NCBI RefSeq assembly: GCF_900603025.1
Contig: NZ_LR026975.1
Coordinates: 5,022,001-5,086,000 of the forward strand
Length of the DNA stretch: 64,000 nt
Direction of reading: 5' to 3'
DNA from: Mycolicibacterium hassiacum DSM 44199
Lineage (GTDB): Bacteria > Actinomycetota > Actinomycetes > Mycobacteriales > Mycobacteriaceae
Part shown: positions 20,461-64,000 of the stretch, piece by piece
How positions within the stretch are numbered: position 1 is the first letter of the stretch
Layout: the number at the start of each line of letters is the position of its first letter
Notes under the pieces: model-generated
The model's database searches: none
Seen by the model: only the letters and a program-made list of their open reading frames with translations
What the model was told of the DNA's origin: nothing
Position numbers and translations under genes: made by a program

Positions 20461-22953
<2,493 letters not shown>

Positions 22954-23013
22954 TGTATGGACGCCTGCCACGTTAGCCCACCGGGAACGCCGGCGAAACC
23001 GGTGGCCCGGGTG

Positions 23014-57101: not shown

Positions 57102-57917
57102 ATGGCGATCGGTGGAGTGCTGTTCGACATCGACGGAGTACTGGTCACGTCCTGGCAGCCGATCCCCGGCGCGGCCGAGACGCTGCGCCGGCTCGCCGAC
57201 GCGCAGATCGCCTGCTCGTATTTGACCAACACCACCACCCGTACCCGCGCGCAGATCGCCGAGCTGCTGACCCGGGCCGGGATGGAGGTACACGCCGACG
57301 AGGTGATCACCGCCGCCGTGCTCACCGCCGAGTACGTCCGCAACAACTATCCCGGTGCGCGCTGTTTTCTGGTCAACAGCGGCCGGATCGACGAGGACAT
57401 GCCCGGCGTCGACATCGTCTATTCCACGGAGTTCGAGGGCCCCGACGCTCCCGAGACCCCCGACGTGGTGCTGCTCGGCGGGGCCGGGCCGGAATACACC
57501 CACCTGGTCCTGTCTTGGGTGTACGACTGGATGTCCCAAGGGGTTCCGGTCGTCGCCATGCACCGCAGCACCGCCTGGACCACCGCGCACGGGCTGCGCA
57601 TCGACACCGGCATGTACCTCATCGGCATGGAGCAGACCTCCGGCCGCAAGGCCACCGCGGTGGGCAAGCCCGCGCCGAACGGGTTCCTGGCCGCGGCCGG
57701 CCGGCTCGGGGTCGACCCCGACGAGATGTTCATGGTCGGCGACGACCTGCACAACGACGTGCTGGCCGCCCAGGTGGTCGGCATGACCGGCGTGCTGGTG
57801 CGCACCGGCAAGTTCCGCCAGGACACGCTCGACCGTTGGGCCGCAGACGAATTCGCTATGCAGCCGAACCACGTCATCGACTCGGTGGCCGACCTGCCGG
57901 CGCTGCTAGAACTGTAG
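57102..57917 (+). CDS. HAD-superfamily hydrolase (IIA subfamily)
   Basis: This 271-residue phosphatase has the HAD motif I DIDGVLVTSW (Asp nucleophile and general acid), motif II in SYLTNTTTRTR, the motif III Lys in AVGKPAPNGF and motif IV MFMVGDDLHNDVLAAQ. The cap domain follows the NagD/LHPP pattern. It likely dephosphorylates a small molecule in the cytosol; the substrate is not identifiable. The gene ends 12 bp inside the convergent helicase gene. Confidence 0.9.
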   Translation: MAIGGVLFDIDGVLVTSWQPIPGAAETLRRLADAQIACSYLTNTTTRTRAQIAELLTRAGMEVHADEVITAAVLTAEYVRNNYPGARCFLVNSGRIDEDMPGVDIVYSTEFEGPDAPETPDVVLLGGAGPEYTHLVLSWVYDWMSQGVPVVAMHRSTAWTTAHGLRIDTGMYLIGMEQTSGRKATAVGKPAPNGFLAAAGRLGVDPDEMFMVGDDLHNDVLAAQVVGMTGVLVRTGKFRQDTLDRWAADEFAMQPNHVIDSVADLPALLEL

Positions 57918-59600
57918 TTTGCGGACCGCCTCGATGCGGGCCTGCAGCTGCTCGGAGGTGGCCGCCGCCACCGGCGGGCCGCCGCAGATGCGGCGCAGCT
58001 CGTTGTGGATCCAGCCGTGCGGCTTGCCGGTGCGGTGGTGCGCGATGGACACCAGCGTGTTGAGCTCGCGGCGCAGCTCGCGCAGCTTGGAGTGGGCGGT
58101 CTGGGACGGCACCGGCACCTCGCCGGTGGACCGCTTGCGCAGCTGCTCCTCCTGCCGGCGGCGCAGCAGATCCCGCATCTGCTCGGGATCCAGCAGGCCG
58201 GGGATGCCCAGGTAGTCGGCCTCCTCCTCACTGCCGGCCGGGGTCGCGGTGCCGAACGAGGCGCCGTCGAAGATCACCTGGTCCAGCTCGGCCTGCGCGC
58301 CCAGGTACTCCACGCCGCCGTCCTGCTCGGTCTTCTCGTCCTTGCGGCGCTTGGCGTCCTCGAGCAGCTCGTCGTCGAGGCCGTCGGACTCGCGGTGCGG
58401 CTTGCCCAGCACGTGGTTGCGCTGGCTCTCCATCTCGCTGGCCAGCAGCAGCAGGTTGGGCACCGACGGCAGGAAGATGCTGGCCGTCTCACCGGGCCGG
58501 CGCGACCGCACGAACCGGCCGATGGCCTGGGCGAAGAACAGCGGGGTGGAGGCGCTGGTGGCGTACACGCCGACGGCCAGCCGCGGCACGTCCACGCCCT
58601 CGGAGACCATGCGCACCGCGACCAGCCAGCGCGAGTCGCCCGCGCTGTACTCGCTGATGCGGTCGGAGGCGCCGGGGTCGTCGGAGAGCACCACGGTCGG
58701 GGTCTCGCCGGTGATCTGCTCGAGCAGCCGGGCGTAGGCGCGGGCCGCGGTCTGGTCGGAGGCGATGATCATGCCGCCGGCGTCCGGCACGTGCACCCGC
58801 TTCTGCTGCAGCCGCTTGTCGGCGGCCTTGATCACCGCCGGCATCCACTCGCCCTTCGGGTTGAGCGCGGTGCGCCAGGCCCGGGCGGTCTGCTCGGCGG
58901 TCAGCGGCTCACCGAGCCGGGCGGCGTACTCCTCGCCGGCGCTGTCGCGCCAGCGGGCCTCGCCGGAGTAGGCCAGGAACACCACCGGGCGCACCACACC
59001 GTCGCGCAGCGCGTCGGAGTAGCCGTAGACGAAGTCGGCCTTCGACTTGAGGAAGCCGCTCTCGTCGGGTTCGTAGGTGACGAACGGGATCGGGTTGTCG
59101 TCGCTGCGGAACGGGGTACCGGTCAGCGCCAGCCGCCGGGTGGCGTCGCTGAACGCCTCCCGGATGGCGTCGCCCCAGCTCTTGGAGTCGCCGCCGTGGT
59201 GGATCTCGTCGAAGATGACCAGCGTCCGGCGGTTCTCGGTGCGTACCCGGTGCCGGGTGGGATGGCTGGCGACCTGGGCGTAGGTCACCACCACCCCGTG
59301 GTACTCCGAGGACGTCTGGGCGTTGGAGTTGGAGAACCGCGGGTCGAGGTGGATGCCCAGCCGGGCCGCCGACGCCGCCCACTGGAACTTCAGGTGTTCG
59401 GTGGGCACCACGATGGTGATCGTGTCGACGGTGCGGTCGGCCAGCAGTTCGGCCGCCACCCGCAGCGCGAAGGTGGTCTTGCCGGCGCCGGGGGTCGCCA
59501 CGGCCAGGAAGTCTCGTGGCTTGGTGGTCAGATACTTGACCAGCGCTTTTCGCTGCCATCCCCGCAGGCCCTGGGTGCTTGGCGCGGTGTCAACCGGCAC
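57906..59600 (-). CDS. DEAD/DEAH-box helicase, SF2
   Basis: This 564-residue helicase starts at GTG 59600, five bases after a near-perfect ribosome site (AAAGGAGGT). It has a Q-like motif (GWQRKALVKYL), motif I AVATPGAGKTTFALRVA, motif II VIFDEIHHGGDSKSWG, motif III LTGTPFRS, and motifs V-VI in SEGVDVPRLAVGVYATSASTPLFFAQAIGRFVRSR. The C-terminal ~130 residues are highly charged. Widely conserved in actinobacteria; it probably acts in nucleic-acid repair or processing. Its 5' side faces the CRISPR region, but nothing in it marks it as a cas gene. Confidence 0.9.
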   Translation of the reverse strand: MPVDTAPSTQGLRGWQRKALVKYLTTKPRDFLAVATPGAGKTTFALRVAAELLADRTVDTITIVVPTEHLKFQWAASAARLGIHLDPRFSNSNAQTSSEYHGVVVTYAQVASHPTRHRVRTENRRTLVIFDEIHHGGDSKSWGDAIREAFSDATRRLALTGTPFRSDDNPIPFVTYEPDESGFLKSKADFVYGYSDALRDGVVRPVVFLAYSGEARWRDSAGEEYAARLGEPLTAEQTARAWRTALNPKGEWMPAVIKAADKRLQQKRVHVPDAGGMIIASDQTAARAYARLLEQITGETPTVVLSDDPGASDRISEYSAGDSRWLVAVRMVSEGVDVPRLAVGVYATSASTPLFFAQAIGRFVRSRRPGETASIFLPSVPNLLLLASEMESQRNHVLGKPHRESDGLDDELLEDAKRRKDEKTEQDGGVEYLGAQAELDQVIFDGASFGTATPAGSEEEADYLGIPGLLDPEQMRDLLRRRQEEQLRKRSTGEVPVPSQTAHSKLRELRRELNTLVSIAHHRTGKPHGWIHNELRRICGGPPVAAATSEQLQARIEAVRKLQF

Positions 59601-59746
59601 CCGGGACCTCCTTTCGGTCGAGACACAGACGAAGCGGACGCATTCCGGGGATAGATCTTGGCAGCCCGGCCCGGGCCACGCCCGCACCCCCGGTGTGGGC
59701 GAGCCCACCCCGCTGGTGCCGGGGCCGGTGGCGGCCCCCGCGCGGG

Positions 59747-60586: not shown

Positions 60587-63500
60587 GCTGCAATGCGGCT
60601 CCGTCTCAGGGACGGAGATCACTCGTCGCTGAAGGGCATGTGATCGATGCCACCGAAGCGCTGCAATGCGGCTCCGTCTCAGGGACGGAGATCACGAGAA
60701 CGTCGCCAACCCGGCCAGCCAGCACCGGTACGAGCTGCAATGCGGCTCCGTCTCAGGGACGGAGATCACCCATCGCTCGGCTGATCTCGTGCGGTTCCAG
60801 CATTCGGCTGCAATGCGGCTCCGTCTCAGGGACGGAGATCACCAGGATTGACCAGACCCAACTCGATGCCGAACGTCAAATCTCGCTGCAATGCGGCTCC
60901 GTCTCAGGGACGGAGATCACGAAGGTCTCGACGGCGCGTTGTGCGGAGCGGCGGGACTTGCTGCAATGCGGCTCCGTCTCAGGGACGGAGATCACGCAAC
61001 GGAGTCGTGCCACAGCAGGCGATCGCGGCGCTGCTGCAATGCGGCTCCGTCTCAGGGACGGAGATCACCTCGTAGGCCGCGCGCTGGGCCTGCTCGTGGG
61101 AGTCGAGCTGCAATGCGGCTCCGTCTCAGGGACGGAGATCACACGCGAAGCACATCAATGAGGCGTGCGATGTCACGCCGCTGCAATGCGGCTCCGTCTC
61201 AGGGACGGAGATCACATAGTGCAGCGCTGTGATCCGAAGGTTCGGCCTCATGTGACGCTGCAATGCGGCTCCGTCTCAGGGACGGAGATCACACGGTGTT
61301 CATCCGCGCGCAGCGGCTCGGGGTCGCGCTCGCTGCAATGCGGCTCCGTCTCAGGGACGGAGATCACCAAGACGCACTACACCCTGCCCACCGATGGCCT
61401 GGCTGCTGCAATGCGGCTCCGTCTCAGGGACGGAGATCACTACAGCGCCGACATGATGGTGACCTTTTTTGTCAACGCTGCAATGCGGCTCCGTCTCAGG
61501 GACGGAGATCACAAGGGGGTGGCAGCATGATGAACACTGAACATTCGAGCTGCAATGCGGCTCCGTCTCAGGGACGGAGATCACTTGAAATTGTCTGCGG
61601 CACCGGGCATTACGTGTTCTCGCTGCAATGCGGCTCCGTCTCAGGGACGGAGATCACGACCTGCCCATTCATCTGTCTAGCGCCCTTGACTAGAGCTGCA
61701 ATGCGGCTCCGTCTCAGGGACGGAGATCACTTAGCGTGTTGGTGTGGTCGAGGTCGCCCACCACATCGCTGCAATGCGGCTCCGTCTCAGGGACGGAGAT
61801 CACCTCTGTGTCCGCACACGCACACGCTCACAGCTCGTCCAGCTGCAATGCGGCTCCGTCTCAGGGACGGAGATCACCCGAAGTCGCCTGGGCGCGACGC
61901 CGAACCGTACCACGTGGCTGCAATGCGGCTCCGTCTCAGGGACGGAGATCACGACAGATGCGAGATTCGTATCCCGCCCACCTTCTCTCTGCCGCTGCAA
62001 TGCGGCTCCGTCTCAGGGACGGAGATCACCCGAGCTGCGCGGCCTCGAATGGAGTCGCGTCGACCTCGAGCTGCAATGCGGCTCCGTCTCAGGGACGGAG
62101 ATCACCTGGCCGAGGCGCAACAGGGCACTTGGAAGAAGCTCACTGGGGCTGCAATGCGGCTCCGTCTCAGGGACGGAGATCACGGTTGTGTCCGAGCCGA
62201 TTCCGGTCACCCAGAACGGCTGCAATGCGGCTCCGTCTCAGGGACGGAGATCACGCGCGCCGGCAGGTAGGCGCGGTCTGGGTGAGCGGTGTGGCTGCAA
62301 TGCGGCTCCGTCTCAGGGACGGAGATCACCCGATGACACCACCGTCTACATCGGCATCGACTGGACGGCTGCAATGCGGCTCCGTCTCAGGGACGGAGAT
62401 CACCTGTACATGCTTGGTGTGGCGGCTGAGTCGCTGCGCCGATGGCTGCAATGCGGCTCCGTCTCAGGGACGGAGATCACTCGGGGCAGGTCCTTGACGC
62501 CGCCCTGTCACTTCAAGGCTGCAATGCGGCTCCGTCTCGGGGACGGAGATCACCTCGCCAACAGTCAGATGGCGTTTCCCGATGGCATGGTGCTGCAATG
62601 CGGCTCCGTCTCAGGGACGGAGATCACTTCGAGGATGCCGCTGACGAACGTGCGACCCAACTCGGAGCTGCAATGCGGCTCCGTCTCAGGGACGGAGATC
62701 ACGACCGACCTCGTGCCGGTCGTGCAGGGCGAGAAGATGCTGCAATGCGGCTCCGTCTCAGGGACGGAGATCACGAGTTGCCGGAGGCGGGGTCGTGACA
62801 GCGGCTGTGTTGCTGCAATGCGGCTCCGTCTCAGGGACGGAGATCACATGGCAAGGCATGCGCGCATCCTCGAATACGGCTCGGCTGCAATGCGGCTCCG
62901 TCTCAGGGACGGAGATCACCTGCGTCGAAGACGGGCTGATGGAGTCCGCACCGAATGGCGCTGCAATGCGGCTCCGTCTCAGGGACGGAGATCACCCGAA
63001 GATCGGGTGCACCCCGGCGGCTCGGCAGGCCTTCTGCTGCAATGCGGCTCCGTCTCAGGGACGGAGATCACCAGCAACAACATTGCCGGACGCAACCGTG
63101 GGCTCATAGCTGCAATGCGGCTCCGTCTCAGGGACGGAGATCACCTGACGCAGCCGCCGCACCTCATCAGGGTCCATCCGCTGCAATGCGGCTCCGTCTC
63201 AGGGACGGAGATCACCTGGCGAGCACATCGTCCAGTTCGGCGAGTTCCAGATCGGGCTGCAATGCGGCTCCGTCTCAGGGACGGAGATCACGCCGGTACT
63301 CATCGCGCTTGTCCGGCGGGGTCTCGTCGATGCTGCAATGCGGCTCCGCCTCAGGGACGGAGATCACCGAGTGAACCGCACGTGATCGGGTTGGAGGGAT
63401 GACAGCTGCAATGCGGCTCCGTCTCAGGGACGGAGATCACTCGTTCGGCCAACCCAGGTCTCCGTTGGCGTAGGTGCTGCAATGCGGCTCCGTCTCAGGG

Positions 63501-63875
63501 ACGGAGATCACAAAGCCGCTTCTGCCGCAAGCGGTGGTGGTGTTAACGCTGCAATGCGGCTCCGTCTCAGGGACGGAGATCACCAACGAGCATTATGGCG
63601 GCAAGCGCGGCAGGTTTCGGGCTGCAATGCGGCTCCGTCTCAGGGACGGAGATCACCTCGGTGACGGCAACCGCGACAACAACGGCCGTATCGCTGCAAT
63701 GCGGCTCCGTCTCAGGGACGGAGATCACTGGCAGCCGGCGCCGACAGATCGCTGTAGTAGAAAAGCTGCAATGCGGCTCCGTCTCAGGGACGGAGATCAC
63801 GGGAGGTGCCCGATGACCGCGCGCGACGTGATCGATTGGGCTGCAATGCGGCTCCGTCTCAGGGACGGAGATCAC
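60587..63875 (-). CRISPR. CRISPR array, 45 repeats and 44 spacers
   Basis: A 36-bp repeat (plus strand begins GCTGCAATGCGG and ends GACGGAGATCAC) occurs 45 times from 60587 to 63875. All spacers differ by eye and are 35-42 nt long. The repeat contains a 7-bp hairpin, CTCCGTC / GACGGAG with a 5-nt loop. Only two repeats differ from consensus: one loop base at 62518-62553 and one stem base at 63332-63367. Read on the minus strand, the repeat ends ATTGCAGC, close to the ATTGAAAC-type 3' end of many type I and type III repeats, so I place transcription leftward. No cas genes are in the window; type I-B-like or III is a guess. Confidence 0.97.
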
Positions 63876-64000
63876 AGCTGCGGAAGTTTACCACACTTCA
63901 CCTGCATCGATCGGCGTGTCCGCGAGAGGTGGTTCATGATGCGGTCGGTGGCCACACAATCTTCTTCACTATGGAGTTGGAAAGGTGCTCTGAGCTGCGT
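63876..64000 (-). promoter_or_regulatory. Probable CRISPR leader
   Basis: The 125 bp to the right of the last repeat are clearly more AT-rich than the surrounding genome and also more so than the left flank. They contain no open frame. If the array is transcribed from the minus strand, this is where the leader and promoter would be; TAAACT lies about 11 bp before the first repeat. The window ends here, so the full leader and any cas genes are not seen. Confidence 0.55.

What the first reader, a model, noticed from the sequence alone, without database searches (positions are those of the whole stretch)
60587..63875. Large, very uniform CRISPR array with no cas genes in view
Seen: 45 repeats, 44 distinct-looking spacers of 35-42 nt and only two repeat variants over 3.3 kb. 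Large arrays are unusual in this group of actinobacteria; M. tuberculosis carries type III-A with an unrelated 36-bp repeat. The repeat end ATTGCAGC resembles repeats of type I-B/III systems, some from thermophiles. Inference: an actively acquired system, perhaps obtained horizontally, with cas genes beyond position 64000.
Basis: partly seen in the sequence, partly recalled or inferred. Interest (0 to 1): 0.8.

Follow-up and report, generated by a model that had tools for sequence, protein, structure and literature searches.

The report
Type I-G CRISPR array targeting mycobacteriophages
The array is real and belongs to a complete, already published CRISPR-Cas immune system of subtype I-G in the heat-loving Mycolicibacterium hassiacum; its cas genes start just beyond the window and some of its spacers match mycobacteriophages.

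Summary
The array is confirmed: 45 repeats of 36 bp at 60587-63875, 43 identical and two with one substitution each, with 44 distinct spacers of 35-42 nt. "No cas genes" is only the window edge. An operon with open frames for csb1-csb2-cas3-cas8g-cas4/1-cas2 lies on the minus strand and ends 166 bp past the last repeat. It is type I-G, not I-B or III.

Some spacers match mycobacteriophages. Of 12 protospacers examined, 8 carry TTN at the crRNA 5' side (background TT 3.7%), the PAM published for I-G. This supports minus-strand transcription.

The system is already in print. The M. hassiacum genome paper gives the same repeat, 45 copies and position 5,082,586-5,085,876 (PMC10832570). Another paper describes both cas loci (PMC10333696), and a third reports mycobacteriophage matches for M. 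hassiacum spacers (PMC7820667).

Added here: the operon's "hypothetical protein", in print a possible novel cas-like gene, is by inference the Cas8g-family subunit; a TTN PAM is inferred; and the Cas4/1 groups with non-mycobacterial ones, unlike that of the second I-G locus. Ordinary; low interest.

The parts
60587..63875 (-). CRISPR array: 45 repeats of 36 bp and 44 spacers; in crRNA sense the repeat is GTGATCTCCGTCCCTGAGACGGAGCCGCATTGCAGC and the array is read on the minus strand
   Evidence: orientation inferred from the TTN PAM side, the 3'-terminal ATTGCAGC handle and hairpin, and co-direction with the cas operon
63876..64000 (-). putative leader, 166 bp, the last 41 bp of it beyond the window. 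The cas operon follows outside the window, all on the minus strand (position = L007 coordinate + 63499): cas2 at 64042-64329, cas4/cas1 fusion 64333-66177 (true start probably further in), cas8g 66029-66967, cas3g 66964-70038, csb2 69986-71683, csb1 71683-72900
   Evidence: leader by position only (no sigma-70-like site); cas genes by ORFs and family models, Cas4/1 by 7mi4, Cas3 motifs
63801..63839 (-). spacer 44, leader-proximal: 39/39 match to a prophage-like region of another genome of the genus (G183), flank TGC rather than TTN
63216..63255 (-). spacer 36: 39/40 to the major capsid gene of Mycobacterium phage Phox (Bixzunavirus), flank TTG
62703..62738 (-). spacer 29: 36/36 to a minor tail gene of Mycobacterium phage Cheetobro, flank TTG
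62330..62367 (-). spacer 24: 36/38 to a PAPS-reductase-like gene of Mycobacterium phage Phalconet, flank TTC
61368..61404 (-). spacer 11: 34/37 to a DNA methylase gene of Mycobacterium phage Dynamix, flank TTC
60770..60806 (-). spacer 3: 33/37 to a DNA cytosine methyltransferase gene on a Mycolicibacterium farcinogenes plasmid, flank TTC

Best explanation
This is the array of a complete type I-G CRISPR-Cas adaptive immune system of Mycolicibacterium hassiacum. The array is transcribed on the minus strand, in the same direction as the cas operon. Csb2 (Cas5-Cas6) would cut each repeat just before ATTGCAGC, leaving an 8-nt 5' handle. Csb1 (Cas7), Csb2 and Cas8g would form the Cascade complex on the crRNA. 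Targets with a TTN PAM, among them mycobacteriophages, would be bound and then cut by the Cas3 helicase-nuclease. Cas4/1 with Cas2 would insert new spacers at the cas2-proximal end (63875). Shown by sequence: the array, the operon with open frames, the kept nuclease motifs, the phage matches, the TTN flanks. Inferred from characterised I-G systems: RNA processing, interference, acquisition.
For: Array. Six cas genes with open frames match I-G or general Cas models above cut-off: Cas4/1 754 bits (cut-off 560), Cas3g 740 (400), Csb2 244 (45), Csb1 46.9 (38), Cas8g/Cas3-extension family 226 (65), Cas2 33.7 (24.5); the best PADLOC hit of each of the six is the g subtype. Motifs: Cas1 E/H/D, Cas4 D...DIKKG and Cys cluster aligned to 7mi4; Cas3 GSGKS, DEVH, HDLGKAD. 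Targets: 307 of 322 phage records matched by the whole array at E<=10 are named Mycobacterium (the 60 rows listed are all spacer 36); without spacer 36 the three parts of the array give 34 of 45, 73 of 88 and 20 of 42. Best matches 36/36, 39/40, 36/38. PAM: 8 of 12 protospacers have TT at -3/-2, no other offset tested has more than 2 of 12, background 3.7%, binomial p 1.4e-9; TTN is the PAM stated for I-G (PMC9638904, passages). The repeat folds into a hairpin followed by exactly 8 unpaired nt; the T. sulfidiphilus Csb2 leaves an 8-nt handle (PMC9638904). The genome paper gives the same coordinates, repeat and count and argues the system is still active (PMC10832570, passages).
Against: No expression, interference or acquisition data. 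4 of 12 protospacers lack TTN, including the perfect match of the newest spacer 44 (flank TGC). Among the nine matches with E<=0.01 TTN is 5 of 9; the other three come from weak matches (E 0.03, 0.2 and 1). Weaker matches in genus genomes (17 loci, best ungapped placement, which may not be the BLAST place) show TT at -3/-2 in 0 of 17. 32 of 44 spacers have no examined protospacer. Match identity does not rise significantly towards the leader (Spearman 0.33, p 0.30, n=12). 24-nt exact searches of four leader-proximal spacers in viral contigs found nothing. Plasmid matches are weak: of 28 records only one has E<0.3.
Confidence: 0.93

Rival explanations
1. A dead or dormant system: genes and array look intact but are not expressed, or phages have largely escaped.
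For: No functional data; the perfect protospacer of the newest spacer sits in a prophage-like region of another genome without TTN, as an escaped target would; no sigma-70-like promoter found in the leader region by a scan that does not cover other promoter types. Uniform repeats are no proof of activity: the 44 repeats listed for the insertion-broken second array are identical over 35 nt too.
Against: Six open frames with nuclease motifs kept; no gap or insertion in the array, unlike the second array (PMC10832570); two spacers match known phages at 97.5-100% and one a prophage-like region at 100%.
Confidence: 0.12
2. The array belongs to a type I-B or type III system from a thermophile, as the reader suggested from the repeat end.
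For: The ATTGCAGC end resembles the 8-nt handle of many type I and III repeats (recalled); the host is thermophilic (PMC10832570).
Against: The adjacent operon is I-G; no Csm1 match in the whole genome; the I-B Cas1 model scores 143 bits against a cut-off of 304.
Confidence: 0.02
3. An orphan, inactive array.
For: None once the window is extended.
Against: Complete cas operon 166 bp away and spacer matches with the expected PAM.
Confidence: 0.01

Closest known systems
Mycolicibacterium hassiacum CRISPR cluster 5,082,586-5,085,876 (PMC10832570; M. hassiacum cas loci also in PMC10333696)
   Same: Same coordinates (within one base at each end), repeat, 45 copies and strand; same second cluster position with IS256 insertions. 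It is taken to be the same locus.
   Different: PMC10832570 speaks of five Cas proteins where six genes are found here; the terms type I-G and type I-U do not occur in its main text, and the passages seen give no spacer target or PAM for this cluster. PMC10333696 lists a hypothetical protein where Cas8g is assigned here and prints another gene order.
Type I-G of Thioalkalivibrio sulfidiphilus (PMC9638904)
   Same: Cas3, Cas7, Csb2 and a Cas8g large subunit, 36-nt repeat, 8-nt handle; a TTN PAM is stated there for type I-G (passages)
   Different: There the large subunit is equated with Csx17/Cas8u; here the Cas8g-family protein has only 312 aa. Direct sequence comparison with that organism's proteins was not made; no PDB sequence match was found for Csb1, Csb2 or Cas8g.
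Cas4/Cas1 fusion of PDB 7mi4 and kin
   Same: Fused Cas4/1 aligning over residues 70-614 with 421 bits, with the Cas1 and Cas4 motif positions kept
   Different: Its source organism (Geobacter, recalled) was not otherwise compared.
   Same: Cas4/1 61% identical
   Different: Csb1, Csb2 and Cas8g of this locus find no match there at E<=1e-4, and Cas3 only 27% over 419 residues: another I-G effector module.

Membership tests
CRISPR-Cas type I-G | Cas4/Cas1 fusion | tested here: met
   NF049935 754 bits, cut-off 560; 7mi4 alignment
CRISPR-Cas type I-G | Csb2 (Cas5-Cas6 fusion) | tested here: met
   TIGR02165 244 bits, cut-off 45
CRISPR-Cas type I-G | Csb1/Cas7g | tested here: met
   TIGR02570 46.9 bits, cut-off 38; PF09617 137.6 bits, cut-off 25
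CRISPR-Cas type I-G | Cas3g with helicase and C-terminal HD domain | tested here: met
   TIGR02621 740 bits, cut-off 400; HD at residues 816-940
CRISPR-Cas type I-G | Cas8g subunit | tested here: met
   By family models: NF049934 226 bits, cut-off 65; PADLOC Cas8g E=3.7e-85. By fold: inconclusive; the model of this protein has mean pLDDT 40 and the locus-B counterpart has no PDB match at E<=0.001
CRISPR-Cas type I-G | TTN PAM | tested here: met
   8 of 12 protospacers, p 1.4e-9 against local TT frequency; 5 of 9 among the better matches; 4 of 12 depart
CRISPR-Cas type I-G | 36-nt repeat processed to an 8-nt 5' handle | tested here: inconclusive
   36 nt and hairpin with 8 free 3' nt; cleavage itself not testable here
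CRISPR-Cas type I-G | DNA interference in vivo | not testable with these tools
   needs an experiment
CRISPR-Cas type III-A | Csm1/Cas10 | tested here: not met
   0 matches to TIGR02578 in the whole genome; the model rings in 7 of 14 control genomes
CRISPR-Cas type I-B | Cas1b beside the array | tested here: not met
   Cas1 matches the I-B model at 143 bits, cut-off 304; the other operon genes match I-G models

The most novel reading that the evidence does not exclude
M. hassiacum carries two deeply diverged I-G systems (Cas4/1 34% identical) with compact Cas8g subunits (312 aa, and 355 aa from the start chosen here) of two PADLOC families that are at best distantly alike (hhalign probability 61%). 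If these stand in for the larger Csx17-type subunit, they would form compact I-G variants whose PAM sensing and Cas3 recruitment are organised differently, and locus A would be a horizontally acquired, thermophile-adapted version.
Probability: 0.25. Interest if true: 0.4.

Novelty: already known. Interest (0 to 1): 0.15.

Why it matters
Little is new: the locus is in print. What is useful is that a mycobacterial I-G system with open frames throughout, an inferred TTN PAM and identifiable phage targets offers a ready thermophilic test bed for a subtype called the least well understood of type I (abstract of PMC9638904), and that the operon's published hypothetical protein need no longer be treated as a candidate novel cas gene.

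Tried and rejected
Rejected: type III or I-B assignment; orphan array.

Led nowhere: exact 24-nt searches of viral contigs for spacers 41-44 (0 matches each; the other 40 spacers were not searched there); fold of the 312-aa Cas8g (mean pLDDT 40) and of its locus-B counterpart (mean pLDDT 66.7, no PDB match at E<=0.001); promoter/terminator scan of the leader region; identity gradient along the array (not significant); PAM of the second locus (4 protospacers, flanks TGC, TCA, TAC, GAC, none TTN; too few and too weak to conclude); sequence search of Csb1, Csb2 and Cas8g against solved structures (0 matches each).

Left out of counts: of the weak phage, plasmid and genome matches, those other than the 12 chosen (for example spacer 20 to Arthrobacter phage Kuleana, E 1) were not examined for PAM in the count of 12; the choice took one match per spacer, by eye, and kept spacers 40 (E 0.2) and 10 (E 1) because they hit mycobacteriophages. 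One search listed 60 of 322 records, 60 of 88, 40 of 407; some searches listed all. The parts searched leave out spacer 36 and cut spacer 18 in two. Self-targeting was not tested properly (one search scored only 2 of 103 candidate places in the own genome). No topology test was run on the tree.

Full report
What is there. The window holds 45 copies of a 36-bp repeat at 60587-63875 (43 perfect, two with one substitution each; none in 100 shuffles) and 44 distinct spacers of 35-42 nt. The window is C1:5022001-5086000 of a single-contig 5,269,097-bp genome, and the 32-nt repeat core occurs only in this array.

The missing cas genes. The genome continues past 64000 (L007). On the minus strand, towards the array, lie open frames for csb1 (405 aa), csb2 (565), cas3 (1024), cas8g (312), a cas4/cas1 fusion (614-aa frame, probably shorter) and cas2 (95), with overlaps or short gaps. 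NCBIfam and PADLOC name the set as type I-G, and Pfam is consistent: Cas4g/Cas1g 754 bits against a cut-off of 560, Cas3g 740 against 400, Csb2 244 against 45, Csb1 46.9 against 38, and the Cas3-extension/Cas8g family 226 against 65. The cas2 stop codon is 166 bp from the last repeat. The Cas4/1 aligns with the solved fusion 7mi4 over residues 70-614, keeping the Cas1 E, H and D positions and the Cas4 motifs (which residues are catalytic is recalled, except that PMC10504553 names one active-site glutamate per domain, passages). Cas3 keeps GSGKS, DEVH and HDLGKAD. The genome has two Cas1 matches, this one and a second I-G locus, and no Csm1/Cas10 match.

Targets and PAM. The whole array matches 322 phage records at E<=10, 307 of them named Mycobacterium (the 60 rows listed are all spacer 36, in closely related phages for the most part). 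Without spacer 36 the three parts of the array match 45, 88 and 42 records, of which 34, 73 and 20 are named Mycobacterium. Plasmids gave 28 records, one of them with E below 0.3. One search (297 genomes of the genus) gave a perfect match for spacer 44. Flanks were obtained for one protospacer each of 12 spacers and placed in crRNA sense. Matches: spacer 29, 36/36, minor tail gene; 36, 39/40, major capsid; 24, 36/38, PAPS-reductase-like; 11, 34/37, DNA methylase; 6, 33/37, DNA methylase of an M. abscessus prophage; 3, 33/37, plasmid cytosine methyltransferase; 33, 34/40, Rhodococcus phage E3 DNA polymerase; 21, 34/42, tape measure; 8, 31/37, phage Cas4-like exonuclease; 40, 28/36, RDF; 10, 28/39, phage TM4; 44, 39/39, a region of genome G183. 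TT stands at -3/-2 in 8 of 12, against at most 2 of 12 at any other offset tested and a background of 3.7% (binomial p 1.4e-9). TTN is stated for type I-G (PMC9638904, passages), so the position was not chosen after the fact. Among the nine matches with E<=0.01 the count is 5 of 9; the three weak ones (spacers 8, 10, 40) all have it. The exceptions are spacers 6 (TAC), 21 (CGC), 33 (TCC) and 44 (TGC). Seventeen weaker genus-genome loci show it in 0 of 17 (placement by best ungapped match). The G183 region encodes RecE- and RecT-like proteins, an anti-repressor and a RusA-like resolvase by PHROGs, so it is prophage-like.

Orientation. The PAM lies on the side expected if the minus strand is the crRNA. 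The repeat in that sense folds into a hairpin with exactly eight free 3' nucleotides, ATTGCAGC. In T. sulfidiphilus, Csb2 leaves an 8-nt handle by cutting 4 nt past the hairpin base (PMC9638904); here 4 nt separate the inner 7-bp stem from the handle.

Second locus. The genome has a second I-G operon at about C1:387,690-396,070 with another repeat (44 copies found with up to 6 substitutions in L011+L012, in blocks; PMC10832570 counts 47). Its array is interrupted; two of the inserts carry IS256-family transposase genes by my scan, and the paper counts five IS256 copies. Its genes match csb1, csb2, cas3, cas8g and cas4/1 models (the Cas4/1 is below the NCBIfam cut-off, 463 against 560), and a cas2-like frame follows. 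Cas4/1, Cas3 and Csb1 of the two loci are only 30-36% identical. In a tree of 21 Cas4/1 rows (20 different), locus A lies in a supported group (97/99) with Prescottella, an Acidobacteriaceae assembly and two Gordonia sequences, and locus B in one (100/100) with sequences of the genus. This fits separate acquisitions; donor and direction are not shown. In the genus sample 16 of 297 genomes, the own one included, match the Cas4g/Cas1g model at E<=0.001, 7 above its cut-off. The Cas8g proteins of the two loci belong to two PADLOC Cas8g families that are at best distantly alike (hhalign probability 61%, pairwise E 8e-5, 90 columns).

What is known. [quoted passage not shown] it also reports the other cluster at 396,249-409,964 with IS256 insertions. 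The organism is inferred from this agreement; no tool named the genome. PMC10333696 (section 10 part 1 read, passages of others) describes both M. hassiacum cas loci, 44 spacers at the first, a disrupted second array with an intact 19-spacer block (the 20-repeat block), and a hypothetical protein in the operon; [quoted passage not shown] That the hypothetical protein is the Cas8g found here is inferred from its place beside cas1 in a six-gene operon; the supplement was not read. PMC7820667 (passages) reports mycobacteriophage matches for M. hassiacum spacers. I saw no PAM for this system in the passages of these three papers.

Verdict. A real, ordinary and already published type I-G CRISPR-Cas system. 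Additions are modest: Cas8g assignment, inferred TTN PAM and strand, and the contrast in ancestry between the two loci.

Noticed in passing
own genome C1:387,688-409,693 (L011, L012): Second type I-G operon with a different repeat (44 copies found) whose array is interrupted by insertions, two of them shown here to carry IS256-family transposase genes; its Cas4/1 is 34% identical to that of the window's system. Also published (PMC10832570).
   Followed up: yes
L046 1503-1541 (G183:C1, about 4433130-4433170): The leader-proximal spacer 44 matches perfectly a prophage-like region in another genome of the genus, with flank TGC instead of TTN: possibly a PAM-escaped prophage.
   Followed up: partly
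L015, L016, L078-L081, L083: Related I-G Cas4/1 fusions (58-64% identical) sit beside quite different effector genes: Cas3 25-30%, and no Csb1, Csb2 or Cas8g match at E<=1e-4. Adaptation and effector modules seem to have been shuffled within I-G.
   Followed up: partly
L029 / L082 (G251): The Cas4/1 frame of this genome holds one in-frame TGA stop.
   Followed up: no
window 22850-22960 (-): TPP riboswitch (RF00059, 56.6 bits against a gathering score of 54.3).
   Followed up: no
window 57906-59708 (-): ResIII/DEAD-type helicase gene about 0.9 kb from the leader-distal end of the array; no link to the CRISPR system shown.
   Followed up: no
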